Below are positions 24,098 to 42,699 of a stretch of DNA of 64,000 nt, in pieces. The notes beneath the pieces were generated by a model. It was not told the DNA's origin and made no database searches. It worked only from the letters and a program-made list of their open reading frames with translations. Source of the stretch: an uncultured Pelagibacteraceae bacterium (GTDB lineage Bacteria > Pseudomonadota > Alphaproteobacteria > Pelagibacterales > Pelagibacteraceae); contig CACDIC010000006.1 in the NCBI GenBank assembly GCA_902552805.1, positions 1-64,000 of the forward strand. Reading direction: 5' to 3'. Position numbers and translations under genes: made by a program. The first letter of the stretch is position 1, and every line of letters starts with the position of its first letter.

Positions 24098-24101
24098 TAA
24101 T

Positions 24102-25853: not shown

Positions 25854-25867
25854 ATAATTGTTAATAT

Positions 25868-27109
25868 ATGGAAGCATTTACATACAAAGGAATTTCTGAA
25901 GGTAAATACGTTGACGGAGAAATTGAGGCGCTAAATTTAGATGAAGCATCTCATAAGCTTAAAGAGCAAAAAATTATAATAACCAATATTGCTCGTACAT
26001 CTAAAAAGAAAAAAACAGAAGATAAAGAAAAGAAAAAAGGTAAAGGCCTTAGTCTTTTTGGTAAAAAGAAAGCAAAAGTTGAAGATGTATTAATTTTTTC
26101 TAAGCAATTTGCAACGATGGTCAAAGCTGGACTTCCAATATTACAAGTTTTAGGGATGTTAAGAGACCAACTTGAAAGTCCTGCAATGAAGGATGTAGTG
26201 GAAGAAATAAGAAAAAGCCTCGAGGGCGGTGTTACTTTATCAAAATGTTTTGAAAAATACCCAGAGCTTTTTGATAATGTCTATGTAAATTTGATCAAAG
26301 CTGGTGAAGCTAGTGGAAAACTTGATGTTTTCCTTCTTAAGATCGTTGAAGCCCTTGAAAAAAAAGAGAAAATTAAAAAAAAGATTAAATCAGCTTTAAT
26401 GTATCCGAGCATAATGTTTACAGTTGCAATTACTGTCAGTGCCTTCATGTTGGTCAAAGTTGTTCCAGTTTTTGCCAAAATGTATGATGGAATGGGAATA
26501 GAATTACCAGCAGCAACTGCAACAATAATGGCAATGAGTGATTTTTTAAGAGGCACTGGTGGAAAAATATTGTTATTTGGTTCAATCGCTTTTGTCTTTG
26601 GATTTAGATATCTTACTCAAAAAAATGAAAAGGTTAGATATGCATGGCACAAACAAGTTCTAAAGTTGCCAATCTTTGGTGACATGATTTTAAAATCTAT
26701 GTTGGCTAGAGTATCTTTAATTATGGGTAATTTAAGTGCTGCAGGTGTAAATTTACTTGAAAGTTTAGAAATTTCAAAATCAGTTAGTAACAATGTATTA
26801 GTTCTAGAATCTTTAGAAAATGTAAAAAAAGGAGTTTTCTCTGGAGATACTTTAACAAAATTATTTTTAAAAGATCCTTTATTTCCACCTACCTTTGCAC
26901 AATTAATTTCTGTCGGAGAACAAACTGGACAATTAGATGAAATGTTTGGGTCAGTTGCAAAATATTATGAGGCAGAATTTGATACAACTGTTGATAATCT
27001 TTCAGCATTAATTGAACCAATCATGATTGTATTCATGGGTATTATGATTGGTGGATTAATGATCGCAATGTATTCTCCTATTTTCAATGTTGGAGCACTG
27101 ATCGGTTAG
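25868..27109 (+). CDS. pilC: Type IV pilus inner-membrane platform protein PilC
   Basis: The 413-residue protein has two T2SSF domains: the first around residues 75-200 with FSKQFATMVKAGLPILQVL, the second around 275-405 with ARVSLIMGNLSAAGVNLLESL, and about three transmembrane segments. An insert of Lys-rich sequence lies around residues 45-72. PilC couples PilB/PilT to pilin addition and removal. It ends the pilMNOPQBC operon; the next gene on the other strand ends six bases away. Confidence 0.94.
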   Translation: MEAFTYKGISEGKYVDGEIEALNLDEASHKLKEQKIIITNIARTSKKKKTEDKEKKKGKGLSLFGKKKAKVEDVLIFSKQFATMVKAGLPILQVLGMLRDQLESPAMKDVVEEIRKSLEGGVTLSKCFEKYPELFDNVYVNLIKAGEASGKLDVFLLKIVEALEKKEKIKKKIKSALMYPSIMFTVAITVSAFMLVKVVPVFAKMYDGMGIELPAATATIMAMSDFLRGTGGKILLFGSIAFVFGFRYLTQKNEKVRYAWHKQVLKLPIFGDMILKSMLARVSLIMGNLSAAGVNLLESLEISKSVSNNVLVLESLENVKKGVFSGDTLTKLFLKDPLFPPTFAQLISVGEQTGQLDEMFGSVAKYYEAEFDTTVDNLSALIEPIMIVFMGIMIGGLMIAMYSPIFNVGALIG

Positions 27110-27115
27110 ATAAAT

Positions 27116-27547
27116 TTATAATTGTTTAGTTAAAACTAAATGATTAATCCAAGGTTTTTTTCCGTCCTTAAACTCAACCGCATCCATTATTTGTTGAATA
27201 AAAAAGGTTCCTAGTCCACCTGGTTTGACATTATCGATTTCTCTATGTTTAACTTTTCCTGGATCAACAGGTGTACCCATATCATAAAAACCAATTTGCA
27301 ATTTGCTATCCTTACAACTAATTTGTACAACCATTTTATCTTCTGTATCTGGGGCGTCCTTGTATGCGTGTTTAACAATGTTTTGCGCTGCTTCAGCTAT
27401 TGCTAAAACTAATTCGTCTTTTAAATTTTGATCTATATGAAGTTTTTCAAAAACTTCTCTACAAAAACTTCGAACATCTTTTAAACTTGATGATCGCACC
27501 AAAAAATCTTTTTTTTCTGTATGATTTGTGTGAGCCAATTCACTCAT
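27116..27547 (-). CDS. RsbW-like anti-sigma factor serine kinase
   Basis: The 143-residue protein is a single GHKL ATPase domain with the N-box EAAQNIVKHAY near residue 53, G1 box YDMGTP and G2 box GGLGTFFIQ. These are features of RsbW/SpoIIAB kinases that phosphorylate a STAS protein and hold a sigma factor. It is downstream of two STAS genes on the same strand, spaced 6 bases and -4 bases, forming a three-gene unit. No sigma factor gene is visible in the window, so the sequestered target is unknown; it could be a sigma factor elsewhere or a non-sigma output. Confidence 0.86.
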   Translation of the reverse strand: MSELAHTNHTEKKDFLVRSSSLKDVRSFCREVFEKLHIDQNLKDELVLAIAEAAQNIVKHAYKDAPDTEDKMVVQISCKDSKLQIGFYDMGTPVDPGKVKHREIDNVKPGGLGTFFIQQIMDAVEFKDGKKPWINHLVLTKQL

Positions 27548-27553
27548 TAGTGA

Positions 27554-27853
27554 TTATTCCAAATTTAATATTTGTTCTAATTTTGCCATCATAATTACCT
27601 TTAAAACAGATTTACTAACTTCTTTGATAATTACTTTTGTATTTTTCTCTAAAGCTTTTTGGTGACTCTCAATTAAAACTGATATTCCAGAGGAGTCCAT
27701 ATATTGCACATTGCTTAAATTTAAATGAACTTCTTTACCAGTTTCAATGTGTGGAAAAATTACTTCTTTTGCTTTTTCAGTAACATCCATATCGATTTCA
27801 CCATCAAGATGAATCGTTGCTACATTTCCTTCTTCGGTTACTTTGTAACTCAT
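27554..27853 (-). CDS. STAS-domain anti-sigma factor antagonist (RsbV-like), copy 1
   Basis: The 99-residue protein is a lone STAS domain with the phosphoacceptor motif MDSSGISVLIES near residue 51. In RsbV/SpoIIAA this Ser is phosphorylated by the kinase and released by PP2C phosphatases. It overlaps the next STAS gene upstream by 4 bases, and the two paralogs share the DSSGISVLIES core. It probably carries the signal from the three phosphatases in this window. Confidence 0.88.
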   Translation of the reverse strand: MSYKVTEEGNVATIHLDGEIDMDVTEKAKEVIFPHIETGKEVHLNLSNVQYMDSSGISVLIESHQKALEKNTKVIIKEVSKSVLKVIMMAKLEQILNLE

Positions 27854-28134
27854 AAAAATTTCCTCGCCATTGCTAAAACTTTTTCAACTGGTTTACTTAC
27901 TTCTACTAACTCAAATTTTGTATTTTTTTTTTCTGACAACTTCTTACTTTCAATTAAAACTGATATTCCTGATGAATCCATATATTCAACTTTACTTAAA
28001 TTCAGGTGAACTTCATGGCCTGCTTCAATAAGAGGTAGTATTGTCTGTCTAGCTTTATCTGCTACATCCATATCTATTTCACCATTTAGGTGAACTACTC
28101 TTTTTGTATCAATTTCTTCTACTTTATATGTCAT
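27850..28134 (-). CDS. STAS-domain anti-sigma factor antagonist (RsbV-like), copy 2
   Basis: The 94-residue STAS protein has the same MDSSGISVLIES phosphoacceptor motif and an EIDMDV N-terminal strand as its neighbour. It is the first gene of the minus-strand unit STAS-STAS-RsbW. Tandem paralogs suggest either dosage or separate inputs from different phosphatases. A 15-bp palindrome sits 14 bases upstream of its ATG. The divergent pilA gene begins 149 bases away, so both share one intergenic regulatory region. Confidence 0.88.
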   Translation of the reverse strand: MTYKVEEIDTKRVVHLNGEIDMDVADKARQTILPLIEAGHEVHLNLSKVEYMDSSGISVLIESKKLSEKKNTKFELVEVSKPVEKVLAMARKFL

Positions 28135-28147
28135 AAATTATTAAATT

Positions 28148-28162
28148 TGCTCATTATGAGCA
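28148..28162. promoter_or_regulatory. 15-bp palindrome between the STAS unit and pilA
   Basis: TGCTCATTATGAGCA is a perfect inverted repeat with a single central base. It lies in the divergent intergenic region, close to the STAS start, and could be an operator. I see no second copy nearby. Confidence 0.35.
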
Positions 28163-28283
28163 GATATCTTTTATTTTCCACAAAAAAAAACACAAAAAAT
28201 GTGTGTTATATATATTTACATATCATTAAAAAATATTTAAAAATCGTATTATTAAATTAATTTAATTAATATAAAGAGGAGCC

Positions 28284-28811
28284 ATGAAAAATAACAAGGG
28301 TTTTACACTAATCGAATTACTAGTTGTAGTTGCGATTATAGGAATTTTAGCAGCTGTAGGAACTGTTGCATACCAAGGGTACACGGAGGGTGCAAAAAAA
28401 TCTACCTCTAAATCAAATCACGCTTCAGTGGTTAAATATATTGTAGCCGAAGATCAGAAATGTAGCGTTGGTGCAGATAAAGTTTTTGGAGTTGAAGTTG
28501 ATGATGAAAATGAGTCAGTCGTAGGAACTTCATTTAAATGTAAACAGAGAGATGCAGAAGATGTTATAGATGCTGCAATAGCTGCCTTAGTAGAGTTTAA
28601 AAATCCGTATGATAATGACTCAGTTGCAGTTATCGAAGGAACAGCACAAACTAAAGCGGCAGCAAAGACAGCGGCAAAGACAGATGATGAAGAGGGAAAA
28701 ACTTATGTATCAGCCGTTGATGACACAGTTTTTGTTTACACTTGTCATACGAAAGAGTGTTCAGCTTCTGATGACAATGTAGTTGTAAACGAATTGAATG
28801 TTGCAGAATAA
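28284..28811 (+). CDS. pilA: Major type IV pilin PilA
   Basis: The 175-residue prepilin has a short leader MKNNKG and the mature helix FTLIELLVVVAIIGILAAVG with Glu at position 5. The Shine-Dalgarno AGAGGAG, eight bases before the ATG, is one of the best in the window, consistent with high expression. Four cysteines (C59, C86, and two in the YTCHTKEC segment) can form disulfides. A 15/12-bp partial tandem repeat (28656-28682) encodes an Ala/Lys-rich stretch before the C-terminus. PilA is assembled into the pilus fibre. Confidence 0.92.
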   Translation: MKNNKGFTLIELLVVVAIIGILAAVGTVAYQGYTEGAKKSTSKSNHASVVKYIVAEDQKCSVGADKVFGVEVDDENESVVGTSFKCKQRDAEDVIDAAIAALVEFKNPYDNDSVAVIEGTAQTKAAAKTAAKTDDEEGKTYVSAVDDTVFVYTCHTKECSASDDNVVVNELNVAE

Positions 28812-28831
28812 TTTGTTTTAAATTTTATAAT

Positions 28832-29284
28832 ATGATCACCAAAAGCTCAGGATTTAGTTTGCTTGAGCTTGTGGTGGTTGTAGCTATTATAGGAATTCTT
28901 TCAGCAACATCGATAGCTCTTTATTCAGGTTACATAACAAGTGCTAAAAGAAGTGCAGCCAAAAACCTCATAGCACAGGTAGCTTTAGCTCAATCCGAAC
29001 AATATGCTAATTCTGGAACTTACTTTAAAACAGGTTCTGATGAAGTATGTACTCCCGCTGATCCTGGTGGCACTGATGGCGAAAGTGAAATTGTTGATAT
29101 TGAAGTAGCCTTATTTGATGGCGAAAGAACAATACCTAGAGACGGCAATTTTGGATATTGTATTGGAGGAACTGACTCAGCTAATTTTCTTGCAGTTGCT
29201 CAAGAGTTTAAAGGTGGAAATTCAACTGGGTGTAGTTTTGCGATTAGGAAAAGAGGTGGTGTCCAACCATCTGAAGATTGTTAA
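28832..29284 (+). CDS. Second type IV pilin, PilE/PilA-like
   Basis: The 150-residue prepilin has leader MITKSSG and mature FSLLELVVVVAIIGILSATS with Glu at position 5, closely related to PilA in its N-terminus. The C-terminal half has a GYCIGG...GCSF...EDC cysteine pattern resembling PilE-type minor pilins. It begins 20 bases after pilA, so the two are probably co-expressed. It may be a minor pilin, an alternative major subunit, or a DNA-binding pilin; sequence alone does not decide. Confidence 0.88.
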   Translation: MITKSSGFSLLELVVVVAIIGILSATSIALYSGYITSAKRSAAKNLIAQVALAQSEQYANSGTYFKTGSDEVCTPADPGGTDGESEIVDIEVALFDGERTIPRDGNFGYCIGGTDSANFLAVAQEFKGGNSTGCSFAIRKRGGVQPSEDC

Positions 29285-29370: not shown

Positions 29371-31533
29371 ATGAATAATGATATGGCTCAAGAAGTAATA
29401 GATATTTTAACAAGTAATATCGACACCTTATGGGTGATTGATTGTGCGATTTTAGTTTTCATCATGCAAGCAGGTTTTATGTGTATGGAAACAGGTTTAT
29501 CCAGACACAAAAATAGCATTAACGTTGCATTAAAGAATGCGGCAGACTTTGGTGTTTCGGTTGTTATCTTTTGGATTTTTGGTTTTGGTTTGATGTTTGG
29601 CACTTCTTACAATGGATTTTTTGGTACCGATTTATTTTTCTTTAAAACAGATAAGGCGGAGTACATGACTTACTTTGTCTTTCAAGCAATGTTTGTTGCA
29701 ACAGCGGCAACAATTATTTCGGGCGCAGTAGCAGAGAGAATGAAATTTAATGGTTATTTAATCATGACAGTTTTGGCGACTGGAATAATTTATCCAATTG
29801 TTGGTCATTGGGCTTGGTCTTCAAGTTATCTTTCAAAGTATGATCCTGTTGATCAACTCTTAGCAATAACAGGCACAGTTAAAACGACTGGTTGGTTATC
29901 TGATTTAGGTTTTGTTGATTTTGCTGGAAGCACTATTGTTCACTCCGTGGGTGGTTGGATTGCTTTAGCAGCAGTCATTATTTTAGGTCCAAGAATTGGT
30001 AAGTATTCAGATGCTAATAAAGGAAAGTTTACTGGCTCAAGTTTTCCTTTAGCAGTGTTAGGAACACTTATACTGTGGTTTGGTTGGTTTGGTTTTAATG
30101 GCGGAAGCAATGGTGCTATGGATGAGTCTGTTCCATTAATTTTAATCAATACCTTTTTAGCGGCAGCTTTTGGTTTGTTAACTGGATTAGGCGCTTCCTA
30201 CTTAAGATTTAAGAAACCAGATCCATTTTATATTATTTTAGGCCCACTAGCGGGTTTAGTTGCAATTACCGCTGGATGTAATTCAATGACTTCAGTTACT
30301 TCAATTTTTGTTGGAATTGCCGGTGCGATTATTGCAATTATAGTTAACGAAGTATTAAATAAATTTGAAATTGATGATGTTGTTGGAGCGGTACCTGTTC
30401 ACTTGGCTGCGGGAGTTTGGGGGACACTAGCAGTTGGTTTATTTAGTGATCTAAGTATTTTAGATACTGGCCTTGATAGATTTTCTCAAATTAAAATTCA
30501 ATTAATTGGTATCATTTCGATTGGTGCATTTACATTTATATTTTCATTTATAATTTTAAGTCTTTTTAACAAATTTTATCCATTAAGAGTAAGCCCCGTT
30601 CAAGAAGAATTAGGTTTAAATATTGCAGAACATAATGCTGTCTCTATTGAGCATGATTTAATTTCTATTTTAGATAAACAATCAGAGTCTGGTGATCTTA
30701 AAATTAGAGGTCCTCAAGATCCTTTTACAGCAGGGGGCGTGATTGGTCTTTATTATAATAAACTTATGAGCAAACTTGAGACTAGTGAAGATGAAAAGAA
30801 TAAATGGCGTGAGAGAATTTCAAAAGAAGTTAAACTTGCAGTTAAAGTTCAAGAAAACTTTTTACCAAAAAGAAATTTAAAAAATTATCCTGTTCATGGA
30901 ATTAATATTGCAGCAAGAGAAGTATCAGGTGATTTTTTCAGTTTTTATCCTCACAACGATAGCATTTATTTTATAATTGCAGATGTCGCTGGTAAGGGAA
31001 TTCATGCAGGTATGGTAATGGCTAAGGCATCGACTTTGTTTGAAGTTTTAGCTCAATCAAAAGTAGATCCAGATGAAATGGTTTTTCATATGAACAATGA
31101 TTTAAATAATACTAAAACTGCTGGTATGTTTGTAACCTCAATCGTTGGTGAGTATAATTTAATTACAGATGAAATCAGATGGGTGAATGCTGGTCATCAA
31201 CCTGCAATTTTAAGAAACGGACAAGGTAAATACGATCAGTTTGAAAGTTCAGCTCCTCCATTAGGTGTGATTAAACAAAAAGATAAAAGTATTTATAATA
31301 TTCATAAAACAAAATTAAATGGTTCAAGGTTTTATGCTTTTACGGATGGTTTATCAGAAAGTTTAAATGACAATGGAGAAGAAATTGGAATTGAGGGTTC
31401 TATTGGTATCATCGAGCAAAATTATAATAAAGATACGATTAAACAATTAGATAGTATTACTCAATCTGTAATAGGGACGAGCCAAAATAAAAAATTATCT
31501 GATGACTTAACTTTAATAAGTATTGGAAAATAA
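29371..31533 (+). CDS. Ammonium transporter fused to a PP2C/SpoIIE phosphatase
   Basis: The 720-residue protein has a full Amt channel at about 1-410, with eleven or so transmembrane helices and the pore histidines H191 (STIVHSVGG) and H344 (VPVHLAAG). A linker of about 80 residues containing predicted coiled coil leads to a PP2C/SpoIIE domain at about 495-720 with all metal-binding acidic residues: VSGDF, IADVAGKG, TDGLSE and SDDLTL. Amt transports or senses ammonium; the attached phosphatase should dephosphorylate a STAS protein. This makes it a candidate ammonium sensor of the partner switch encoded by 27116-28134. There is no glnK nearby. Confidence 0.92.
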   Translation: MNNDMAQEVIDILTSNIDTLWVIDCAILVFIMQAGFMCMETGLSRHKNSINVALKNAADFGVSVVIFWIFGFGLMFGTSYNGFFGTDLFFFKTDKAEYMTYFVFQAMFVATAATIISGAVAERMKFNGYLIMTVLATGIIYPIVGHWAWSSSYLSKYDPVDQLLAITGTVKTTGWLSDLGFVDFAGSTIVHSVGGWIALAAVIILGPRIGKYSDANKGKFTGSSFPLAVLGTLILWFGWFGFNGGSNGAMDESVPLILINTFLAAAFGLLTGLGASYLRFKKPDPFYIILGPLAGLVAITAGCNSMTSVTSIFVGIAGAIIAIIVNEVLNKFEIDDVVGAVPVHLAAGVWGTLAVGLFSDLSILDTGLDRFSQIKIQLIGIISIGAFTFIFSFIILSLFNKFYPLRVSPVQEELGLNIAEHNAVSIEHDLISILDKQSESGDLKIRGPQDPFTAGGVIGLYYNKLMSKLETSEDEKNKWRERISKEVKLAVKVQENFLPKRNLKNYPVHGINIAAREVSGDFFSFYPHNDSIYFIIADVAGKGIHAGMVMAKASTLFEVLAQSKVDPDEMVFHMNNDLNNTKTAGMFVTSIVGEYNLITDEIRWVNAGHQPAILRNGQGKYDQFESSAPPLGVIKQKDKSIYNIHKTKLNGSRFYAFTDGLSESLNDNGEEIGIEGSIGIIEQNYNKDTIKQLDSITQSVIGTSQNKKLSDDLTLISIGK

Positions 31534-31593: not shown

Positions 31594-32898
31594 ATGTTTT
31601 TGTATTTCGTAAGATTTAAATTATTTTTGATATCAATAATTTTATTGATTTCAACATCCGCTTTTTCGTCAGAAAAAAATATTACTTATATGCAAATCTT
31701 ACAGGATCCTAATAACTTAGATTTAAATTTGAAGTATGCACAACAACAAGGAAAAGTTGGTAACTTTAAACAAACAATCTCAACACTTGAGAGATTGAAT
31801 ATGCTTTATCCAGATAATGTTGAAATAAAATTATATTTGTTATCTGTTTTAGTTCAAGTTGACTCACCGGAAAAAGCTAACACTATTATTGAAGACATGA
31901 AATTAAGAAGAGATCTATCAGCGGAGGATTTAGAAACTTTACAAGAAATTGAAGAAGAATTAAAAGATCGTGAACCAAGCTTGTGGAATTTAACAGCAGA
32001 TGTTGGTTTTGGTGCAACGTTTTCTAATAACGTAAATAGTGTTTCTAAAACTAGATTGAAATATGATGAAGGTTCGATTTCAGCTTTTACATCACCAAAA
32101 CATGATAGAACTGAAAGTGCCTCTATTGGTATTACAGCGACAAGACCTATAGGTGAAGAGTCGTCATTACTATTAAATTTTGGACATACAACATCAAATC
32201 AATATCAAGAGGCAGATGATGATTTCCAAAGTTATGGTTTAACCATAGGATTGGATACTACTTTGGGTAATCAAAGTTTAAGTCCCTATATAATTATGAG
32301 TAAAACTGATGCACAACATGATGCAGATAGTTTTTCATTGATGCTTGGAATAGGAGGTTTTTTTACAGCAGGTGAAAGACATTCCTTCAGTTATGGTTAT
32401 TCATACACAGACTCAAAAGCAAATGAAAATATGTCAGACTTAACAGCGGAAGATACCAATGCAATTGGACATAGTTATACTTTTGGTTATGATTTAATTC
32501 TCACTCCAATAATTTCGAGCTCACTTAGTTTAGGTTATAGCGATAGTGATGCAAAAGTTGATGCTGGGAATGATTATGAAACTTATGAATTTGGTATTGG
32601 ATTAAACTTTGCATTCCCATGGGCTTATATTGCATGGAGTGCATCAACTAGTTTCAACGATTATAAAGTTGTAGACTCTTCTGTAGACTCTACCAAGTTG
32701 AGATCCGATCATGCAACAACAACAGACTTAATGATTACAAAAGCGATAGGAGATATTTTTCCAATAATTGATCCAAACAGATCGTTGTTTATCAACCTGT
32801 CTTACGAAAAAACTTTCTCTGAGGCTAATATAATGAACTATGATTATTTAGCTGATTCCTTCGCATTAAGTTTTTCTAAAGGTTTGAAGCTCAATTAA
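31594..32898 (+). CDS. TPR-containing outer-membrane beta-barrel protein
   Basis: The 434-residue protein has an N-terminal signal sequence (to about residue 25), an alpha-helical TPR-like region at about 30-125 (DLNLKYAQQQGKVGNFKQTI), and a C-terminal region of alternating short hydrophobic/aromatic strands (about 135-434) like an outer-membrane barrel. The organisation resembles surface-lipoprotein assembly modifiers and related TPR-barrel proteins. The following two genes encode FecR and CHASE2 proteins, suggesting a shared envelope unit. Function is not certain. Confidence 0.65.
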   Translation: MFLYFVRFKLFLISIILLISTSAFSSEKNITYMQILQDPNNLDLNLKYAQQQGKVGNFKQTISTLERLNMLYPDNVEIKLYLLSVLVQVDSPEKANTIIEDMKLRRDLSAEDLETLQEIEEELKDREPSLWNLTADVGFGATFSNNVNSVSKTRLKYDEGSISAFTSPKHDRTESASIGITATRPIGEESSLLLNFGHTTSNQYQEADDDFQSYGLTIGLDTTLGNQSLSPYIIMSKTDAQHDADSFSLMLGIGGFFTAGERHSFSYGYSYTDSKANENMSDLTAEDTNAIGHSYTFGYDLILTPIISSSLSLGYSDSDAKVDAGNDYETYEFGIGLNFAFPWAYIAWSASTSFNDYKVVDSSVDSTKLRSDHATTTDLMITKAIGDIFPIIDPNRSLFINLSYEKTFSEANIMNYDYLADSFALSFSKGLKLN

Positions 32899-32997: not shown

Positions 32998-34251
32998 ATG
33001 AAAAAATTATTGTCAGTTGTTACAGGTCTAATTTTCATGATCAGCACAAGTGTTTTTGCTGAGGAGAAATTAACCATTGAAAAACAATTAGTAGGGATTG
33101 TTGGTGCAATTTCGGGAACTGTTAAAACTGAAACAAGAGAATTAAAAGCTGGTGACAAAATTTATTTAAATGAAACAATAGTTGCTGGTGAAGGATCCGG
33201 AACACAAATTTTACTATTAGACCAATCAACATTTACAATAGGTGAAGACTCTGAAGTTGTGATGGATACATTTATATTTGATCCTGCAACAAATGATGGA
33301 AAAATAGTTGCAAGTGTTAAACAAGGAAGTTTAAAAGTTATTTCTGGTTTAATTAGTAAAAAAAATCCTGATAGTTTAACTGTAGAAGTTCCAGAAGGAA
33401 CACTTGGATCACGAGGAACAGAATTTCAAACTATTGTATCAAAAGGTAAAACTGACACTTTATTAATTGGTCCAGGAAAAAATAATACTTTAGGAATGAG
33501 ACCAGGGGCAGTTCTAGTTGGAAATAACTTAGGTTCAACTTTACTTGATAATCCATACAGCATGGCGTCAATGACGAAAGGTAAAGCACCTGGACAAGCC
33601 AAAAAAATTACTAAAAACCAGTTAAAGAAATTTAATAAAAAGATGAAAGCTTTAAGAGTTGCTAAGCTCTCACCTGAGGAAAAGAAGGGCAAGAGAAAAC
33701 AAATGAAAAAGCAACTAAGAAAAGAGCTTAAGTCTATGGGTTTTGAAAAAGAAGAAATTAAATCAATCATTAAAGAAAATATTCAAAAAGATAAAGAGAA
33801 GAAAGTAGCTATCAAAAAAGAGAGAGCTGAGAAGAAAAAAGCCAAAAAGAAAAAAGCTAAAGCAGAAAAGAAAAAGAATAAAAAGAAAAAAGCTAAAAAA
33901 GTAGATAAGAAAAAAGGTAAAAAGAAAAAAGCTACTAAAAAAGGTTCTAAAAAGAAAAAAGCAGTTAAGAAAAAAGAGGGTAAAAAGAAAAAAGCTACTA
34001 AGAAAAAAGCTACTAAGAAAAAAGCTGTGAAGAAAAAACCTGCTAAAAAGAAAAAAGCAGTGAAGAAAAAACCTGCTAAAAAGAAAAAGAAAGCAGTTAA
34101 GAAAAAAGTTAAGAAGAAAAAGAAAGTAGTTAAAAAGAAAAAACCTAAAAAGAAGATTAAGAAAAAAGTAGCGAAAAAAAGAAAAATCGTTAAAAAGAAA
34201 AGAGCAGCTAAAAAGAAAAAAGCTAAGAAGAAAAGAAGAAAAAAGAAGTAA
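32998..34251 (+). CDS. Exported FecR-domain protein with long lysine-rich tail
   Basis: The 417-residue protein has a signal peptide (MKKLLSVV to about residue 22), a FecR domain at about 30-170 with GTVKTETRELKAGDKIYLNE and PEGTLGSRGTEFQT motifs, then from about 195 a tail that is mostly Lys, Ala and Glu. From about residue 270 the tail is dominated by KKK and AKK repeats, resembling histone H1-like tails. FecR domains outside iron regulation often accompany CHASE2 proteins; a CHASE2 phosphatase is the next gene. The tail at the DNA level contains near-repeats of about 33 bases (around 34020-34090), so it may vary in length. Confidence 0.82.
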   Translation: MKKLLSVVTGLIFMISTSVFAEEKLTIEKQLVGIVGAISGTVKTETRELKAGDKIYLNETIVAGEGSGTQILLLDQSTFTIGEDSEVVMDTFIFDPATNDGKIVASVKQGSLKVISGLISKKNPDSLTVEVPEGTLGSRGTEFQTIVSKGKTDTLLIGPGKNNTLGMRPGAVLVGNNLGSTLLDNPYSMASMTKGKAPGQAKKITKNQLKKFNKKMKALRVAKLSPEEKKGKRKQMKKQLRKELKSMGFEKEEIKSIIKENIQKDKEKKVAIKKERAEKKKAKKKKAKAEKKKNKKKKAKKVDKKKGKKKKATKKGSKKKKAVKKKEGKKKKATKKKATKKKAVKKKPAKKKKAVKKKPAKKKKKAVKKKVKKKKKVVKKKKPKKKIKKKVAKKRKIVKKKRAAKKKKAKKKRRKKK

Positions 34252-34310: not shown

Positions 34311-36362
34311 GTGGAAGCTTTTGTACAAAAAAATCTAAATTATTTTGTCTTCTTAATTGTACTTACCTTATTAATTTTTCTAAAAATTTTAAATCCAGCA
34401 TTTATTAAGTCAGTTTCTTATTTAAGTTTTGACTTGTATCAAAAGATATTTGCTGAAGAAAAAGATAGTGAAGTAGTTATCATTGATATTGATGAACAAA
34501 GCCTTGGTAAGTTTGGGCAATTTCCGTGGAACAGAACAGTGTTTGCAAAAATTTTAGATCAACTAAATACTTCAAATCCAAAAGCAATTGGGTTTGATAT
34601 ATTTTTCACTGAAAAAGATAAACAGTCACCTGATGAAATTATTAAATCATATAACTTAATTCCTTCAGATGTTTCTGAATTACAAAATCTAAAAGGTCCA
34701 GATGATTTATTTGCTGAAAAACTAAAAGAGTCAAAATCAATTATTGCGGTGTTAGGTAGTAATGTACCTTCACATACTAACTATAATCGAAAAGCAAAAG
34801 CACGATTTCTTTCTAAAGGAGGAAAGCCAGAGGAATTTACTTATGCCTATCCTTATTCAATAGGTTCATTAGAAAAATTAGAAAAAAATGTTCAAGGTTT
34901 AGGATCCATTTCATTTTTAGATCAGCTCGATGGTATTATTAGATCTCTTCCTTTAATTGTTCAGTTTAATAAAAAGATATATCCAACAATGGGCTTAGAA
35001 ATGGTTCGAGTTGGATCAAAACAAAAAAATATTTACGTCGAATTAAATGAGGTGGGTGTTCAAAGAATAAGTGCAAGACCTTATAAAGTAGAGTCTGATC
35101 CTAACGGTATTATTTGGATTAAATATAAAAAATCACAAAAGAAACAATATATCTCAGCTGGCGATGTTTACGATGGCAATTTTGAAAAAAGTTTTTTTGA
35201 AAATAAGTATGTTTTAATTGGTGCATCGGCACAAGGTTTATTCGATTTAGTTAAAACACCACTCGGTGTTACCATTCCCGGAGTAGAGGTTCATGCAAAT
35301 GTTATTGAAAATATTTTAGATCAATCATATTTAATTAGAAATCCAAACACTTACATCTTTGAATTGATATTTTCTATTATCATTGCTCTTTTAACTTTTA
35401 TTTTATCGCAAAAAATTAAACCGAAATATAGTTTATCAATCTTCTTTGGTAACATTTTAGCAATTATTATTATTGGTTTTTCTATTTATAAATTTAGATC
35501 AGAGTTAGTAGATTTTAGTTATCCAATTTTCATTGTCACAATAACATTTTTAACAGGGCTTTATTTTAGGTTTATTGAGGAAAATAAAATGGCTTTAGCT
35601 AACTTACAAAAAGAGGCTAAACTTTTAAAAGAACGTGAACTAGCAGCGGGAGTTCAAAAAAGCTTATTTCCTGATATTTCAAAGTTTGAAAACTTTATTT
35701 TTGCCAAAAACGTTCCAGCTAGAGATGTCTCAGGAGATTATTTTGATGTTGTTAGATCAACACCTGAAGAATATTTCTTCACCTTAGCTGATGTATCTGG
35801 CAAAGGGGTTAAAGCTGGAATGTATATGGCAAAAGCATCCTCAATTTTTAGAACACTTACTAATTTAAAATTTCCTTTAGAAAAAGTTGTCTTTGGTGTC
35901 AACAATGAATTGGTAGAAGCAAAGTTTAAAGGAATGTTTGTTACTGCTGTTTTTGGTAAATTAAATATCAAAACAGGGGAGCTGGTTTTCATTAATGCAG
36001 GTCACGAAAGTATTCTTACTTTTGATGAAAATAAAAATTATGAATATATCAAATCCGAAATGCCACCCATTGGCATTGTAAAATATTTCACCGAGTCGAT
36101 GGTAAAATCAAATACTATTAATCTTAAAGATAAAACTTTTGTAGTTTATACGGATGGAGTAACCGAAGGGTATATGAAAAATGGTGAAGAGCTAGGAGCT
36201 GAAGGGGTACAAAAAATTATAAACGAAATGTCACAGGTCACACCAAAGTCTATCGTTGAAGCTATCGAAAAAGAGCTTAACTGGGGTGCAGAAAAGTTAA
36301 GGGATGACATCACTTGTATGGCAATAAACATTAATAATACAGAGCTGATAAAGAAGAAATAA
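34311..36362 (+). CDS. CHASE2-domain PP2C/SpoIIE-type phosphatase
   Basis: The 683-residue protein begins with GTG, has one transmembrane helix (about 11-28), a periplasmic CHASE2 domain (about 45-345, with VVIIDIDEQSLGKFGQFPWNR), three transmembrane segments (about 345-415), a coiled coil, and a PP2C/SpoIIE domain at about 445-683. All acidic catalytic residues are present in VSGDYF, LADVSGKG, TDGVTE and RDDIT. CHASE2 senses extracytoplasmic signals; the phosphatase should act on STAS antagonists. It follows the FecR gene by 59 bases. Confidence 0.9.
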   Translation: MEAFVQKNLNYFVFLIVLTLLIFLKILNPAFIKSVSYLSFDLYQKIFAEEKDSEVVIIDIDEQSLGKFGQFPWNRTVFAKILDQLNTSNPKAIGFDIFFTEKDKQSPDEIIKSYNLIPSDVSELQNLKGPDDLFAEKLKESKSIIAVLGSNVPSHTNYNRKAKARFLSKGGKPEEFTYAYPYSIGSLEKLEKNVQGLGSISFLDQLDGIIRSLPLIVQFNKKIYPTMGLEMVRVGSKQKNIYVELNEVGVQRISARPYKVESDPNGIIWIKYKKSQKKQYISAGDVYDGNFEKSFFENKYVLIGASAQGLFDLVKTPLGVTIPGVEVHANVIENILDQSYLIRNPNTYIFELIFSIIIALLTFILSQKIKPKYSLSIFFGNILAIIIIGFSIYKFRSELVDFSYPIFIVTITFLTGLYFRFIEENKMALANLQKEAKLLKERELAAGVQKSLFPDISKFENFIFAKNVPARDVSGDYFDVVRSTPEEYFFTLADVSGKGVKAGMYMAKASSIFRTLTNLKFPLEKVVFGVNNELVEAKFKGMFVTAVFGKLNIKTGELVFINAGHESILTFDENKNYEYIKSEMPPIGIVKYFTESMVKSNTINLKDKTFVVYTDGVTEGYMKNGEELGAEGVQKIINEMSQVTPKSIVEAIEKELNWGAEKLRDDITCMAININNTELIKKK

Positions 36363-36794: not shown

Positions 36795-39188
36795 ATGAAA
36801 GTTTTGAGAGAATTAAAATCAAAAAAAATCTTAAAAGCTGTATTAAAAGGTTCTCTTAAAACAAATGTATTCCTAATCCTTTTAGGAATTTTTTTTTCTA
36901 CACTCGCTTTTGCAGCAGCTTTAACAGTTACTTGGGAAACAGCTATAATTCCAGGTGGAAACAATAATTTTCATGCAAGCAATCCAGGCAGGCCATTCAG
37001 TTGTAAATCAAGCCAAAATGGAGTTGCGCTGACCATAGATAGAACTGAGGAGCCATCAGATATTGCTTTTAGTGATGATGGGTTCACTGTTTTTACGACC
37101 AACAAAAGAGATGCAATGGCTGGTGTATTATTTTCTCAAAATAGACTCACAATACCTTTTGATATTGCTACAGACAAAGTTAAAACAAATCCATCTGCTA
37201 CTTGTGACGATCTAGATGGATTAAATGTAAATACTTTGTCGAATGGAGCTCTAAATAAGCAATTAGAAGATATTGATTTTGCAAAAGACGGAATGGTTTT
37301 TTTTATTATGGCTACTGCTGGTCAATTAGCAAAGTTTAATGCTACTACACCTTTCGATGTTGATGGCTTAACTTATAGTGGAAACAGAATTGTCTTTGAT
37401 AGTACTGTGGATAGTACAGAATTTAGTAGAGATGGCACAAAACTTTTTACATTGCACTCAAATGCTAATTCGCCTTTGCTTACAACTTATTCTGTACCAG
37501 GTGATTACGACATTGCATCATCAACCCAAATTCAACAAGTCGATTTAATGGATTATGGTGTTATAGATGAAGATGGAAATGAAATAGGACAAGATTTTGA
37601 ATTTAATTCTGATGGTAGTGCGTTATTTGTAATGATTAGAAGTAGCACTGTCACTAATTCATTTATCTATCAATTCAGCTTATCAAAGAATTATGACATT
37701 TCTACAGCAACAAAAGTAGGAAGGTTCTCATTAACAGATATTTTTTTAAAACGAACTGCCAATCTAAGTGGTCTTCCATATGGATTTGGTTTTTCTGGGG
37801 ATGGTATGAAATTGTATATTTTAGATATTAGAGATCAAAATAATGCTCCAGACCATATTAATCAATTTCAATTAGAATGTCCTTTTGGTGTTGTTGCTTG
37901 TGTATCAGATCCAACTGCGAGTATTAGTTCACAAGTTGAATTAGCAAAACAAAATATTACTTTAAATATCTCTTCAATTTTTTACAGATTTGAATGGATC
38001 AAAAGAAATAGGGACGAAGAAAACTTTACCAGTCATAACATCAACATAAATTATCCAAATCCTTTATTGAAGAGTTTAGCAATGAGTTTGGAGCCAGCTG
38101 CTAAAAAAAAGATAGCTACTCTTGTAAGTACCAAAAAAAAGGATCAGGAAAAGTCTAAATGGTCTTCATGGAGTTTGGCAGACTTATCGTTAAGTCATTT
38201 TGATAAACTAGGGTTTGAAAACGCAAAAAATATCAGAAACGAGGGAATAACATTTGGTGCTGATAGAAAATTTAGTGATAATAAATTTTTTGGTTGGGCA
38301 ATAAGATATGGCAATGGCAGATCCAACATTGTCAATACAAAACAAAATATCCATATGGACTCATTAACTTTAAATTTATATGGCATCATGCCAAAGGATA
38401 AAGAAAATTATTTAAATGCAGTTTTAGGCTTAAGTGCGCTCAAAATAGATAGTCTTTATTTAGGAAAAAAATCAGGACAAAGATACGGTAAACAATTGTT
38501 CACTGCTATAGATTTTAGAACCAAAAATTCCTATGGTAAAATTAACCTTACTCCCACAACAAAATTTACTTTTGGAATTACAAGATTAGGTGAATATACA
38601 GATTTTTTAAGTGATGTAATCGACTCACCTACACAAAACATAAAATACGATAAAGATACATTTGTAACTGGACAATTTTCGAGCGGATTTTTATTTGAGG
38701 CAGATCAGATAACAATAAATGATAAAACTTTCCAACCAATGGGTGGAATGGAATTTTATTATGATTTATCTCGTGATATTGACTACAATTATTCTCTAGT
38801 AGGCTCTAATCAAGTCAACACTGATACAATTGAAGGAGCATATCATAGACCAAATCTAAGAACTAGCTTAGGTTTTGAACTGATTTATCCTGATGGTCTA
38901 ACTCTATCGCCGTTATATGAAAAAACATTTGCACTCAAAGGATCGACTTTAAATGATGTTCTGTTAAGCAAAGGTATCACAGAACGATTTATAATTAAAA
39001 TTAGCCGCTCAAAAGAAATGGATGGAAATAATTTTGCCCTAGATTTTGATCCTCTCAATCAAAATTATGCCAATATCAGCTTCAATAAAAATCTTGGTAA
39101 TTTAAATCTTAAATTAAATTCTAATTATAGTTTATTTAGTAAAATCCCTGATTATGGTGCAAATTTAGAGATTTCTGGTACTTTTTAA
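36795..39188 (+). CDS. Large surface protein with beta-propeller-like N-terminus and outer-membrane-barrel-like C-terminus, copy 1
   Basis: The 797-residue protein has a signal-anchor-like N-terminus (hydrophobic from about 22 to 45) and repeated beta-rich segments with F-S-x-D-G-x-x-x-F motifs (SDIAFSDDGFTVFTT, FEFNSDGSALFVM, GFGFSGDGMKLYI) as in beta-propellers, to about residue 365. A conserved Cys pair (CPFGVVAC) marks the junction. The C-terminal ~330 residues are amphipathic strands ending in Phe, as for outer-membrane barrels. It is paralogous to the next gene. It might act as a surface autotransporter-like adhesin; that is inference. Confidence 0.75.
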   Translation: MKVLRELKSKKILKAVLKGSLKTNVFLILLGIFFSTLAFAAALTVTWETAIIPGGNNNFHASNPGRPFSCKSSQNGVALTIDRTEEPSDIAFSDDGFTVFTTNKRDAMAGVLFSQNRLTIPFDIATDKVKTNPSATCDDLDGLNVNTLSNGALNKQLEDIDFAKDGMVFFIMATAGQLAKFNATTPFDVDGLTYSGNRIVFDSTVDSTEFSRDGTKLFTLHSNANSPLLTTYSVPGDYDIASSTQIQQVDLMDYGVIDEDGNEIGQDFEFNSDGSALFVMIRSSTVTNSFIYQFSLSKNYDISTATKVGRFSLTDIFLKRTANLSGLPYGFGFSGDGMKLYILDIRDQNNAPDHINQFQLECPFGVVACVSDPTASISSQVELAKQNITLNISSIFYRFEWIKRNRDEENFTSHNININYPNPLLKSLAMSLEPAAKKKIATLVSTKKKDQEKSKWSSWSLADLSLSHFDKLGFENAKNIRNEGITFGADRKFSDNKFFGWAIRYGNGRSNIVNTKQNIHMDSLTLNLYGIMPKDKENYLNAVLGLSALKIDSLYLGKKSGQRYGKQLFTAIDFRTKNSYGKINLTPTTKFTFGITRLGEYTDFLSDVIDSPTQNIKYDKDTFVTGQFSSGFLFEADQITINDKTFQPMGGMEFYYDLSRDIDYNYSLVGSNQVNTDTIEGAYHRPNLRTSLGFELIYPDGLTLSPLYEKTFALKGSTLNDVLLSKGITERFIIKISRSKEMDGNNFALDFDPLNQNYANISFNKNLGNLNLKLNSNYSLFSKIPDYGANLEISGTF

Positions 39189-39226
39189 TATTTTCAAATT
39201 CCAAATATATTTTTTATAAAGTGATT

Positions 39227-41404
39227 ATGAAAAAAAATAAAATCTACATATTTTTATTTAATTTTTTGACTCTAATAACTTATTTTTTTTCTCAAAACGC
39301 GTATGCGAATTTTATATCATCCGGCGATAATCTTACTACCTCCAATTATGTAATACGAAAATTTGATGTTAATGCTCAATTAACTGATCCTAGAGAAATT
39401 ACATTTAATAATGATGGAACAAAAATGTTTACAGTTGATACTAATGCAGACGACGTATTTGAATATACTCTATCAACACCATACGACATTTCGACAGCTG
39501 TTTTTGTCCATAACTTTTCACTGAATGAAGATAGTAGTAGTAGACCATTTGGTGTTAGGTTTAACAATGATGGATCAAAAATGTTTATTGCTGGAAGATC
39601 AGAACAAAGAGTATTTGAATATTCACTCTCTAGAAAATTTGATATATCATCAGCAACGTATACTGGAAATTTTATTGATGTTTCGGCGCAAGTTGACAAG
39701 GGTAAATTATTTGGTCTAGTTTTTAGTCCTGATGGTACAATGATGTTTGTTACTGAGAATGGATTTGGTTTGCATCAATATTCATTAAACAAAAGTTTTG
39801 ATCTTTCGGGTGGAGCTAATTTTATAAGATCTGCTGAAGTGTCAACTGTTTCGGGTGGAAAACAATATACTGGTATAACGTTCAATCAAAGTGGTACAAG
39901 AATGTTTGTGGTAGACTCAGCATTTAATGAGATTAATCAATATACTTTATCTGAGGGTTTTAATATTTCGACAGCATCTTTTGATGGTGGTGCAACAGCA
40001 AAACAATTTTCACACCCAAATCCCACAGATAATGGTGACCCCCAAGGTATAGACTTTAGTCCCTCTGGGTTAAAAATGTATGTTTCACATCTTGCTGTTT
40101 CTGGTACTGAGACGAATGCAATGATTATAGAATATCACTTGCCTTGTCCGTTCAATCTTTTTGCTGGAAAATGTACAGAGATTACAGAAGGAGATAGAAG
40201 AGGAGTAGCTGAAGCTCAGATTAATATTGCAAATAGAACAATTGAACACTCAACAGACACAGCGCTCAATCGTTTAAAATGGATTAGACGAAATAAAGAT
40301 CTTCAAGATTTAAGCTTTAGGAATATTAAACTTAATTTTTCTAATCAAATGTTAGCTTCTCTTGCTGAGGCTATTCAAGTTTCAACATCTCCTAAAGAAA
40401 AAAGTAAAAATAGAGATATCTTTTATTGGGCTGAGGGAAGTTTAGCCTTTGGTAAAGTTAGAGAAACAGATATTTCATCTAAGAAAAAAATCTATACTGA
40501 TGGTATTACTATTGGTGCTGATAAGTTTACTGATGATCGAGAAATAAAAGGCCTAGCGTTTAGATATAGTCAAAATGATTTGAAAGTTGGTATCGATGGA
40601 AGTAGGCTAGATACAGATACTTACAATTTAACCTATTATTCAACCACTCCAGTAAAAGATGACAATAGATTTTTAGATGCGGTTGTTGGTATTGGTGCAC
40701 TTTATTCAGATATCTCAAGTGTTTTAGATGGAAATAAATTAACTGGAAATAGAAATGGTAAACAAATTTATGGAACTTTAAAATTGAAAGAGGAAATTAA
40801 AAAAGATGAGCTTACCTTAATTCCTGCTGCTCAAATTGATTTAGGTTATACATTGTTGAGTAGCTATTCAGAAAGTGGAAAAACTGCAATGAGATTTGAT
40901 AAACAAAGTATTCAGTCAAGAAATTTAAGATTATCTCTAGCCTCAGTTGAAGAATTAAACAATAAAAGATATAAAATGAAAAGACATGGTAAAATTGAAT
41001 ATCAAGCTAATTTACATCGCTCATCTAACATAAAATACTCTTACATAAGTGATAGCTCAACTAAATATGATACCGAATTAAATTCTGGAGCATTACATAA
41101 TATTAATGGTGAATTAGGTGTTGATATTATTTATGATAATAACTTTAGTTTATTTTTTATTGTTGAACACAATTATAAACATAGAGTTGGTTATACGAAT
41201 AAAATTCATATAGCTATTGGTTATCTACCACAAAAAAATACAAATTTTGCTTTTAAAATTGAAGGAGATGACATTTTAAAATCAAAATATATTTATACCA
41301 AAAATGTTAATGGGTTGGATATTGATTTTTATTTACTAAATAATGATGCGATGAGACCTGAAACATTTGATGAAATCGCTTTAAATTTAAGGAAAGTTTT
41401 TTAA
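39227..41404 (+). CDS. Large surface protein with beta-propeller-like N-terminus and outer-membrane-barrel-like C-terminus, copy 2
   Basis: I choose the ATG at 39227 (725 residues) over a GTG two codons upstream. After a signal peptide ending near NAYA, about five repeats of 50-60 residues follow, each with an F-N/S-x-D/S-G-x-x-M-F core (ITFNNDGTKMFTV, RFNNDGSKMFIAG, LVFSPDGTMMFVT, GITFNQSGTRMFV, IDFSPSGLKMYVS). After a Cys pair (CPFNLFAGKC) the C-terminal ~390 residues look like an outer-membrane barrel ending in Phe. The domain order is shared with the upstream gene, showing a tandem duplication. Confidence 0.77.
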   Translation: MKKNKIYIFLFNFLTLITYFFSQNAYANFISSGDNLTTSNYVIRKFDVNAQLTDPREITFNNDGTKMFTVDTNADDVFEYTLSTPYDISTAVFVHNFSLNEDSSSRPFGVRFNNDGSKMFIAGRSEQRVFEYSLSRKFDISSATYTGNFIDVSAQVDKGKLFGLVFSPDGTMMFVTENGFGLHQYSLNKSFDLSGGANFIRSAEVSTVSGGKQYTGITFNQSGTRMFVVDSAFNEINQYTLSEGFNISTASFDGGATAKQFSHPNPTDNGDPQGIDFSPSGLKMYVSHLAVSGTETNAMIIEYHLPCPFNLFAGKCTEITEGDRRGVAEAQINIANRTIEHSTDTALNRLKWIRRNKDLQDLSFRNIKLNFSNQMLASLAEAIQVSTSPKEKSKNRDIFYWAEGSLAFGKVRETDISSKKKIYTDGITIGADKFTDDREIKGLAFRYSQNDLKVGIDGSRLDTDTYNLTYYSTTPVKDDNRFLDAVVGIGALYSDISSVLDGNKLTGNRNGKQIYGTLKLKEEIKKDELTLIPAAQIDLGYTLLSSYSESGKTAMRFDKQSIQSRNLRLSLASVEELNNKRYKMKRHGKIEYQANLHRSSNIKYSYISDSSTKYDTELNSGALHNINGELGVDIIYDNNFSLFFIVEHNYKHRVGYTNKIHIAIGYLPQKNTNFAFKIEGDDILKSKYIYTKNVNGLDIDFYLLNNDAMRPETFDEIALNLRKVF

Positions 41405-41964: not shown

Positions 41965-42015
41965 AAATCCTTTATATTTGAAAAAAATCGATAATGCATT
42001 TTTTTTAGGATCTGT

Positions 42016-42021
42016 TATAGT
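42016..42021 (+). promoter_or_regulatory. Possible extended -10 element for the LysE leader
   Basis: TGTTATAGT (42013-42021) fits an extended -10 (TGn followed by TATAGT). Transcription would start near 42028, just at the start of the hairpin described next. No good -35 is seen. Confidence 0.35.
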
Positions 42022-42028
42022 GTGATTT

Positions 42029-42084
42029 GATAGTCCTACTTAGCCATCTTTAGCTCCCGGTTTTTTAGGACTATCTTTTTTTTT
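42029..42084 (+). terminator. Hairpin with T-run directly before the LysE start codon
   Basis: GATAGTCCTA (42029-42038) pairs perfectly with TAGGACTATC (42066-42075), followed by nine T residues (42076-42084) and then the ATG at 42085. The loop is 27 bases and includes the pyrimidine-rich CTCCCGG segment. This has the form of an intrinsic terminator ending a roughly 57-base RNA. It may be an attenuator or riboswitch-like leader of the LysE gene, or a small RNA terminator. No known riboswitch class is recognised. Confidence 0.6.
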
Positions 42085-42699
42085 ATGCTCCCCCTGGATT
42101 TTATCCTTTTTTTACAGATCATAATTTTTCTATTCATTACACCAGGAACCCCTCGGATAGTTATTATTACTTATTCGATGAATTATGGAGTTAAAAATTG
42201 TATTTGGACAGCTTTAGGCGATGTTACCGCAAATTTATTTCAAGCAACTTTAGTAATTTTTGTTATAGGAACTTTTTTGTCGGATAATTCATACTTTTTA
42301 AACTTTTTTAAGTGGCTTGGGGTAATTTATTTAATGTATTTAGCTTATGATGTGTACAAATCTTCTCCAAAAGATGTAAATTCAAAAATAATTAGCACCA
42401 AAAGTGTTTTTTCTTTTTATAAAGATGGTTTTTTAGTTGCTGGAACAAGTCCTAAAGCTTGGTTGTTCTTTCCTTTAATATTTCCCCAGTTTATTGACTT
42501 TAATACGAATTATATTGTTCAATTCTTTATTTTAATAACAACTTATGTTGTTTTAGATTTTATTTCTTTGATTGGTTATGCTTTGTTAGCACAAAAATTA
42601 ATTACATGGATTAAAGCAAATCCAAAAACAATTAATACAATCTCAGCGAGTGTTTTAGTAATCATTGCATTAATTATTATTGTTACACAACAATATTAG
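42085..42699 (+). CDS. LysE/RhtB-family amino-acid exporter
   Basis: The 204-residue protein has about six transmembrane helices and the N-terminal LysE signature FITPGTPRIVIITYSMNYG (the usual form is TPGPN). It sits in the inner membrane and exports an amino acid or related metabolite. The PGTP in place of PGPN is a local deviation. No Shine-Dalgarno is present; instead the T-run of a hairpin abuts the start codon, so expression may depend on readthrough. Confidence 0.82.
   Translation: MLPLDFILFLQIIIFLFITPGTPRIVIITYSMNYGVKNCIWTALGDVTANLFQATLVIFVIGTFLSDNSYFLNFFKWLGVIYLMYLAYDVYKSSPKDVNSKIISTKSVFSFYKDGFLVAGTSPKAWLFFPLIFPQFIDFNTNYIVQFFILITTYVVLDFISLIGYALLAQKLITWIKANPKTINTISASVLVIIALIIIVTQQY

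What the first reader, a model, noticed from the sequence alone, without database searches (positions are those of the whole stretch)
36795..41404. Tandem paralogs combining beta-propeller-like repeats with an outer-membrane-type barrel
Both proteins have repeated F-x-x-D/S-G-x-x-M/L-F segments in the N-terminal half, a conserved Cys pair at the junction and a C-terminal barrel-like half ending in Phe. I do not recognise a family for this arrangement. The passenger-like propeller could be exposed at the surface, giving a new autotransporter-like adhesin or receptor.
Basis: partly seen in the sequence, partly recalled or inferred. Interest (0 to 1): 0.6.

Follow-up and report, generated by a model that had tools for sequence, protein, structure and literature searches.

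The report
Autotransporters with swappable beta-propeller heads
These two neighbouring genes of an ocean bacterium (SAR11) encode classical autotransporters that are predicted to display a five-bladed propeller on the cell surface; the barrel is of a known type, but the propeller is exchanged between strains as a cassette, its outward face is hypervariable, and marine phages carry the same propeller family in their tail-gene regions, which points to a recognition or adhesion role.

Summary
Confirmed: 36795-39188 (P1) and 39221-41404 (P2) are tandem paralogs (26% identity) with five FxxDGxxMF-type repeats each, a Cys pair at the junction and a C-terminal barrel ending in Phe. The barrel is a known family, Pfam Autotransporter PF03797 (E 1.6e-14 and 1.2e-28), so "no recognised family" is wrong for that half; "autotransporter-like" is right. 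An alignment-based AlphaFold2 model of P2 (pLDDT 79) gives a five-bladed propeller, a 34-residue helix and a barrel; Foldseek matches EstA, NalP and EspP, and YncE-type propellers. The window is Pelagibacteraceae (SAR11), in a neighbourhood resembling hypervariable region 1 of HTCC1062, where tandem type V autotransporters were noted in 2007. Found here: (1) the propeller is swapped as a cassette between conserved flanks (neighbour gene 99%, barrel 94%, passenger 33-41% identical; mirror cases exist; AU p<1e-67); (2) variation concentrates in the BC/DA loops of one face, with dN/dS 1.9 in close P2 orthologs but 0.66 family-wide; connectivity puts that face away from the cell; (3) homologous propellers lie in tail-gene regions of marine phages; (4) the genes follow a conserved TPR-OMP/FecR/CHASE2-SpoIIE cluster. 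Most likely a diversifying surface receptor or adhesin; ligand unknown. New variant of a known kind.

The parts
36795..39188 (+). P1: autotransporter, 797 aa: signal peptide about 1-41, five-repeat propeller passenger about 43-360, Cys362/Cys369, helix with W401, PF03797 barrel 476-705, C-terminal F797
36921..37874 (+). P1 passenger cassette (about residues 43-360), the segment exchanged between strains
39221..41404 (+). P2: autotransporter, 727 aa: signal peptide about 1-30, five-bladed propeller 45-306, Cys309/Cys318, helix 324-357, barrel strands from 400, Pfam barrel 403-646, extra ~58 residues to F727
39353..40138 (+). P2 propeller (residues 45-306); BC and DA loops (predicted distal face) are hypervariable
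40145..40417 (+). P2 junction (residues 309-399): Cys pair, long helix with invariant R351, W354, R357; strong purifying selection (dN/dS 0.04 in close orthologs)
40418..41401 (+). P2 translocator barrel (residues 400-727)
34311..36362 (+). CHASE2-SpoIIE (PP2C-type) phosphatase, conserved gene directly upstream of P1
32998..34251 (+). FecR-domain protein with signal peptide and lysine-rich tail, conserved neighbour
31594..32898 (+). TPR-like N-terminal part plus outer-membrane-barrel-like protein (weak Pfam matches only), conserved neighbour
29371..31533 (+). Ammonium transporter fused to a SpoIIE phosphatase domain, conserved neighbour

Best explanation
P1 and P2 are classical (type Va-like) autotransporters of a SAR11 bacterium. 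The Sec signal peptide sends them to the periplasm, the C-terminal barrel inserts in the outer membrane, and the passenger, a five-bladed propeller, is carried to the surface and probably stays tethered through the helix in the barrel pore (inferred; no known cleavage motif was seen by eye). Blade 5 ends at the face made of AB/CD loops, so that conserved face points to the membrane and the BC/DA-loop face points out. The outward face varies most in sequence and length, and the whole propeller is exchanged between strains as a cassette bounded by the signal peptide and the Cys pair. The most likely function is a diversifying surface recognition protein (adhesin or receptor). Steps: autotransporter with propeller passenger 0.95; surface display 0.85; cassette exchange 0.95; diversified ligand recognition 0.6. 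The ligand is unknown.
For: Barrel: PF03797 over cut-off; Foldseek top hits EstA, AaaA, NalP, EspP, BrkA. Propeller: AF2 with 83 sequences, pLDDT 79, pTM 0.71, five four-stranded blades closed by an N-terminal strand; YncE and 6-phosphogluconolactonase folds; profile match to the surface-layer propeller 1l0q, E 8.8e-10. Cassette exchange: P1 vs L033, L035, L082: CHASE2 neighbour 0.99, barrel 0.94, passenger 0.33-0.41 identical; P1 vs L034: passenger 0.88, barrel 0.54, signal peptide 0.62; identity changes at about residues 41 and 361; dS differs in step, 0.21 against 1.14; AU tests reject both congruent trees, p 2e-77 and 3e-68. Distal variability: entropy 3.16/3.07 for BC/DA against 1.57/1.65 for AB/CD; inserted residues per sequence 16.5/22.8 against 0/0.1. 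Selection: dN/dS 1.92 for distal loops (bootstrap P(dN<=dS) 0.0015), 0.28 proximal, 0.13 barrel, in three P2-ortholog pairs. Homologs in phage tail-gene regions. The same barrel module carries Ig-like and F5/8C discoidin passengers.
Against: dN/dS over 1 holds only in the closest P2 orthologs; over 27 disjoint pairs the distal loops average 0.66 (0.59-0.73), which relaxed constraint could give. No localisation or binding data exist. Face assignment rests on predicted connectivity. The last ~58 residues of the barrel are modelled poorly (pLDDT 39-48). Co-conservation with the cluster was counted on loci found through the autotransporter.
Confidence: 0.68

Rival explanations
1. The variable face is driven by escape: the propeller is itself bound by phages or grazers, or acts as a decoy, and diversity is selected to avoid recognition rather than to bind new ligands.
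For: Cassette exchange and distal-loop diversification are what escape would also give; the neighbourhood resembles SAR11 hypervariable region 1.
Against: Escape alone does not explain keeping several ordered paralogs, or the use of the same propeller family in phage tail-gene regions and beside adhesin-type passengers.
Confidence: 0.2
2. The passenger is a surface enzyme (lactonase/phosphogluconolactonase-like hydrolase).
For: Weak SGL match in P2 (E 1e-4, below cut-off); Foldseek includes 6-phosphogluconolactonases.
Against: Propeller enzymes usually keep catalytic residues on the top face (general knowledge), which here is the most variable part; conserved passenger positions look structural.
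Confidence: 0.08
3. The propeller is the outer-membrane input of a signalling chain that passes through the TPR-OMP, FecR and CHASE2-SpoIIE proteins to the STAS/HATPase partner-switching pair.
For: CHASE2-SpoIIE is directly followed by an autotransporter in 34/34 loci, with FecR 23/23 and TPR-OMP 22/22 upstream where the flank allows; two STAS genes, the only ones found in the genome, and a HATPase lie in the same region.
Against: Some relatives have the autotransporters without this cluster nearby (L090-L110); classical autotransporters have no known inward signalling; regulation of the autotransporter by the cluster is simpler.
Confidence: 0.08
4. The N-terminal propeller stays in the periplasm (BamB-like) and the barrel is a porin-like channel.
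For: Propellers are common in the periplasm; no experiment excludes it.
Against: PF03797 barrel with a preceding long helix, EstA as best fold match, and hypervariability restricted to one face.
Confidence: 0.04

Closest known systems
Classical type Va autotransporters (EstA, NalP, EspP, BrkA, AIDA-I)
   Same: Signal peptide, N-terminal passenger, helix before a PF03797 barrel, terminal Phe; EstA is the top fold match
   Different: Passenger is a five-bladed propeller, not a beta-helix or GDSL enzyme; ~58 more C-terminal residues than other alphaproteobacterial barrels matched here, with extra predicted strands
Type V autotransporters of SAR11 hypervariable region 1 (HTCC1062 SAR11_0042/0044/0046; PMC2217521)
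   Same: Tandem homologous autotransporters beside ammonium transporters and pilin genes in SAR11
   Different: Sequences not compared here; that paper, in the passages read, does not describe passenger fold or cassette exchange
Coastal SAR11 autotransporter adhesin (PMC12636525)
   Same: SAR11 autotransporter beside type IV pilus genes
   Different: 5-9.5 kb genes there, 2.2-2.4 kb here; sequences not compared
XatA of Xylella fastidiosa (PMC3426408)
   Same: Autotransporter with passenger repeats predicted to form a propeller
   Different: Six LGxL repeats; no cassette exchange or variable face reported in the passages read
SPATE autotransporters (PMC3153244)
   Same: Near-identical barrels (>95%) with divergent passengers (<35%), and recombination
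   Different: SPATE passengers are proteases; no peptidase match here
Propellers in tail-gene regions of marine phages (Lentibacter phage ICBM2 gp51, Roseobacter phage CRP-13 gp43)
   Same: About 31-33% identical over the passenger, same repeat with a period of 52 in gp51, same predicted fold
   Different: No autotransporter barrel aligned; role in the virion not annotated

Membership tests
Classical (type Va) autotransporter | C-terminal PF03797 beta-domain over the curated cut-off | tested here: met
   54.7 and 101 bits against 26; Foldseek EstA/NalP/EspP/BrkA
Classical (type Va) autotransporter | Sec signal peptide followed by an N-terminal passenger in the same chain | tested here: met
   Hydrophobic N-terminal helix with AxA-type ends seen in the sequence and model; no dedicated signal-peptide predictor was available
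Classical (type Va) autotransporter | Alpha-helix between passenger and barrel, placed in the pore | tested here: inconclusive
   Helix 324-357 is predicted between passenger and barrel; that it lies in the pore was not examined
Classical (type Va) autotransporter | Twelve-stranded barrel | tested here: inconclusive
   About 16-17 strands assigned, the last at pLDDT 39-48; ~58 residues longer than related alphaproteobacterial barrels
Classical (type Va) autotransporter | Passenger translocated to the cell surface | not testable with these tools
   Needs localisation in cells
SPATE serine protease autotransporters | S6 peptidase passenger | tested here: not met
   No peptidase match in Pfam
EstA-type GDSL autotransporters | GDSL/SGNH esterase passenger | tested here: not met
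   No GDSL match; passenger modelled as propeller
PATR/beta-helix autotransporters | PATR repeats or beta-helical passenger | tested here: not met
   No PATR match; present in a 2005-aa SAR11 protein of another genome
XatA family | LGxL repeats in the passenger | not tested
   XatA sequence was not compared
SAR11 HVR1 autotransporters of HTCC1062 | Same genomic neighbourhood and homologous sequence | tested here: inconclusive
   Neighbourhood similar by gene names; sequences not compared

The most novel reading that the evidence does not exclude
SAR11 populations keep a pool of interchangeable, surface-displayed propeller heads under diversifying selection on the outward face, served by conserved barrels and exchanged by recombination, and the same propeller family is used by marine phages for recognition; the set is controlled through FecR/CHASE2-SpoIIE and an ammonium-transporter phosphatase acting on a STAS/HATPase switch.
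Probability: 0.3. Interest if true: 0.78.

Novelty: new variant of a known kind. Interest (0 to 1): 0.6.

Why it matters
[quoted passage not shown] A family of displayed propellers whose outward face varies most, and which are swapped between otherwise near-identical loci, would be a concrete candidate for what these cells use to recognise particles, neighbours or phages. It also makes part of the hypervariable region testable: one defined domain, with a defined variable face, that can be produced alone.

Tried and rejected
Single-sequence AF2 of P2 gave a useless model (pLDDT 33) and was dropped for the alignment-based one. Direct PDB sequence searches with the single proteins found nothing convincing. 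NCBIfam gave no over-cut-off match. I first read the median pairwise dN/dS (0.66 passenger, 0.15 barrel) as general positive selection; disjoint pairs limit dN/dS over 1 to the close P2 orthologs. A chimera artefact of single-cell amplification was considered: it would not repeatedly place two boundaries at the same residues with matching flanks in several genomes, plus mirror cases, so it is thought unlikely. Promoter and terminator scans showed no excess. A single viral-contig match (L148) has the propeller repeats but no barrel match. A search for papers joining propeller, tail fibre and marine phage returned none.

Full report
Identity of the window. Named relatives of the two proteins found in the species-level genome collection are all Pelagibacteraceae/Pelagibacterales, mostly single-cell genomes. 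The window is contig C6 of a 1.07-Mb, 22-contig assembly, 87% complete. So this is SAR11.

Observation. P1 (36795-39188) and P2 (39221-41404) are intact tandem ORFs 32 bases apart, 26% identical. Each has five FxxDGxxMF-type repeats in its N-terminal half, far more than shuffles give. The Cys pair and the R..W..RN helix motif are almost invariant in 83 relatives. A third paralog lies at G000:C4:42284-44365.

Anatomy. The C-terminal halves match Pfam Autotransporter over the cut-off. The alignment-based AF2 model of P2 (pLDDT 78.9, pTM 0.71) shows an N-terminal hydrophobic helix, five four-stranded blades (strands 45-306, the last blade closed by the N-terminal strand 45-49), a 34-residue helix (324-357), a poorly modelled linker (362-398) and barrel strands from 400. 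Which strands form which blade is my reading of the strand list, not of coordinates. Foldseek puts full-length EstA first, then AaaA, NalP, EspP and BrkA, with YncE and 6-phosphogluconolactonase for the propeller. Other alphaproteobacterial autotransporter barrels that match reach only profile position about 246-270 of 328 and mostly end within 2-24 residues of it; a few match over shorter stretches and are uninformative; this family continues ~58 residues. Those extra strands are at low confidence, so the strand count is open.

Cassette exchange. In 31 loci (window included) where CHASE2-SpoIIE is followed by an autotransporter, identity was measured by segment. Against the window, L033, L035 and L082 share the CHASE2 neighbour at 0.99 and the barrel at 0.94 but the passenger at only 0.33-0.41. 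L034 is the mirror image: passenger 0.88, barrel 0.54, signal peptide 0.62. Three further mirror pairs exist (L043/L045, L078/L080, and L036/L086, where the barrel could not be measured). The identity profile changes at about residues 41 and 361 of P1, i.e. at the signal-peptide end and the Cys pair. Synonymous distance changes in step (P1 vs L034: 0.21 passenger, 1.14 barrel; P1 vs L033: 1.28 and 0.29), so rate differences alone do not explain it. Trees disagree: the barrel data reject window+L034 (p 2e-77) and the passenger data reject the six-row barrel clade (p 3e-68). These groups were chosen after seeing the identities, and the trees were quick ones; the likelihood differences (184 and 731 units) are large.

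Variable face. Using the model's strands, the BC and DA loops have mean entropy 3.16 and 3.07 against 1.57 and 1.65 for AB and CD, permutation p 1e-4; nearly all inserted residues fall in BC, DA and strand D. In propellers BC/DA lie on one face and AB/CD on the other (general knowledge). Blade 5 leaves after its third strand, at the AB/CD face, towards the helix and barrel; hence BC/DA would face outwards. This is inference from connectivity. In three disjoint P2-ortholog pairs dN/dS is 1.92 for the BC/DA loops, 0.88 strands, 0.28 AB/CD, 0.04 junction, 0.13 barrel. Over 27 disjoint pairs it is 0.66, 0.32, 0.20, 0.24 and 0.24. So the outward loops are the fastest throughout, but dN/dS over 1 is shown only for the close P2 orthologs. 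Counting-method estimates were used; no codon-model site test was run.

Surroundings. Directly upstream are CHASE2-SpoIIE (34311), FecR (32998), a TPR/OMP-like protein (31594) and an ammonium transporter fused to SpoIIE (29371), then two pilin-like genes and a type IV pilus cluster. In 78 loci found through the autotransporter, 34 hold CHASE2-SpoIIE and all 34 are directly followed by an autotransporter; FecR is upstream in 23/23 and TPR-OMP in 22/22 where the flank is long enough. These loci were picked by the autotransporter, so the count shows a conserved order, not independence. In the reverse direction, all ten genomes (the window's own included) with full-length CHASE2-SpoIIE at 71% identity or more have the family somewhere. 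G036 shows the full order from pilus genes to three autotransporters. In G012, where CHASE2-SpoIIE is 42% identical, a 2005-aa PATR protein, TPR-OMP and FecR relatives lie nearby. Other relatives (L090-L110) have the autotransporters without this cluster in view. A HATPase and the only two STAS matches in the genome lie at 27116-28125, so partner switching fed by the SpoIIE phosphatases is plausible; not shown.

Relatives elsewhere. Outside SAR11, matches reaching into the passenger were seen in two other alphaproteobacterial genomes of 289 searched (G303, G212); the rest match in the barrel. The same helix-barrel module carries Ig-like (Big_5) and F5/8C discoidin passengers in other SAR11 proteins. 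Marine phage genomes encode propellers related to the P2 passenger: Lentibacter phage ICBM2 gp51 (33%, five repeats of period 52) lies between tail-assembly genes, and CRP-13 gp43 beside putative tail and fibre genes. A viral contig (L148) encodes a collagen-like protein with the repeats after terminase-like and portal-like genes, my reading of the translations. That these are receptor-binding parts is inference.

Known work. Tandem type V autotransporters beside ammonium transporters and pilins are listed for hypervariable region 1 of HTCC1062 (PMC2217521); a coastal SAR11 adhesin beside pilus genes was described in 2025 (PMC12636525). Passenger divergence on near-identical barrels is known in SPATEs (PMC3153244), and a propeller passenger was predicted for XatA (PMC3426408). 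High recombination in SAR11 is reported (PMC7542561). I searched an open-access library only, so priority claims are limited.

Verdict. The barrel is ordinary; the head is not. A surface-displayed, cassette-exchanged propeller with a hypervariable outward face is best read as a recognition protein. Ligand, localisation and regulation are untested.

Noticed in passing
29371-31533: Ammonium transporter (AmtB family) fused to a SpoIIE-type phosphatase domain; no paper joining these terms was found in the library.
   Followed up: partly
27116-28125, - strand: HATPase_c_2 gene and two STAS matches, the only STAS matches in the genome; a likely partner-switching module near two SpoIIE-domain proteins.
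   Followed up: partly
32998-34251: FecR-domain protein with a long lysine-rich C-terminal tail.
   Followed up: no
18957-29284: Type IV pilus/type II secretion-like cluster: PilM/PilN fusion, PilO, secretin, ATPase, PilC-like, two pilin-like genes.
   Followed up: no
42011-42093: Rfam rhtB sRNA (RF01814) just upstream of and overlapping the start of a LysE-family gene at 42085.
   Followed up: no
L060:8487-11393 and L018:1-2736: The same autotransporter barrel module carries Big_5 Ig-like passengers, with an F5/8C discoidin domain in L060.
   Followed up: partly
L149, L150, L148: Marine phage and viral contigs encode related propellers in or near tail genes; L148 joins collagen-like repeats to the propeller.
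   Followed up: partly
39221-41404 (P2 residues about 669-727): C-terminal extension of ~58 residues beyond the barrel end of other alphaproteobacterial autotransporters, predicted as extra strands at low confidence.
   Followed up: partly
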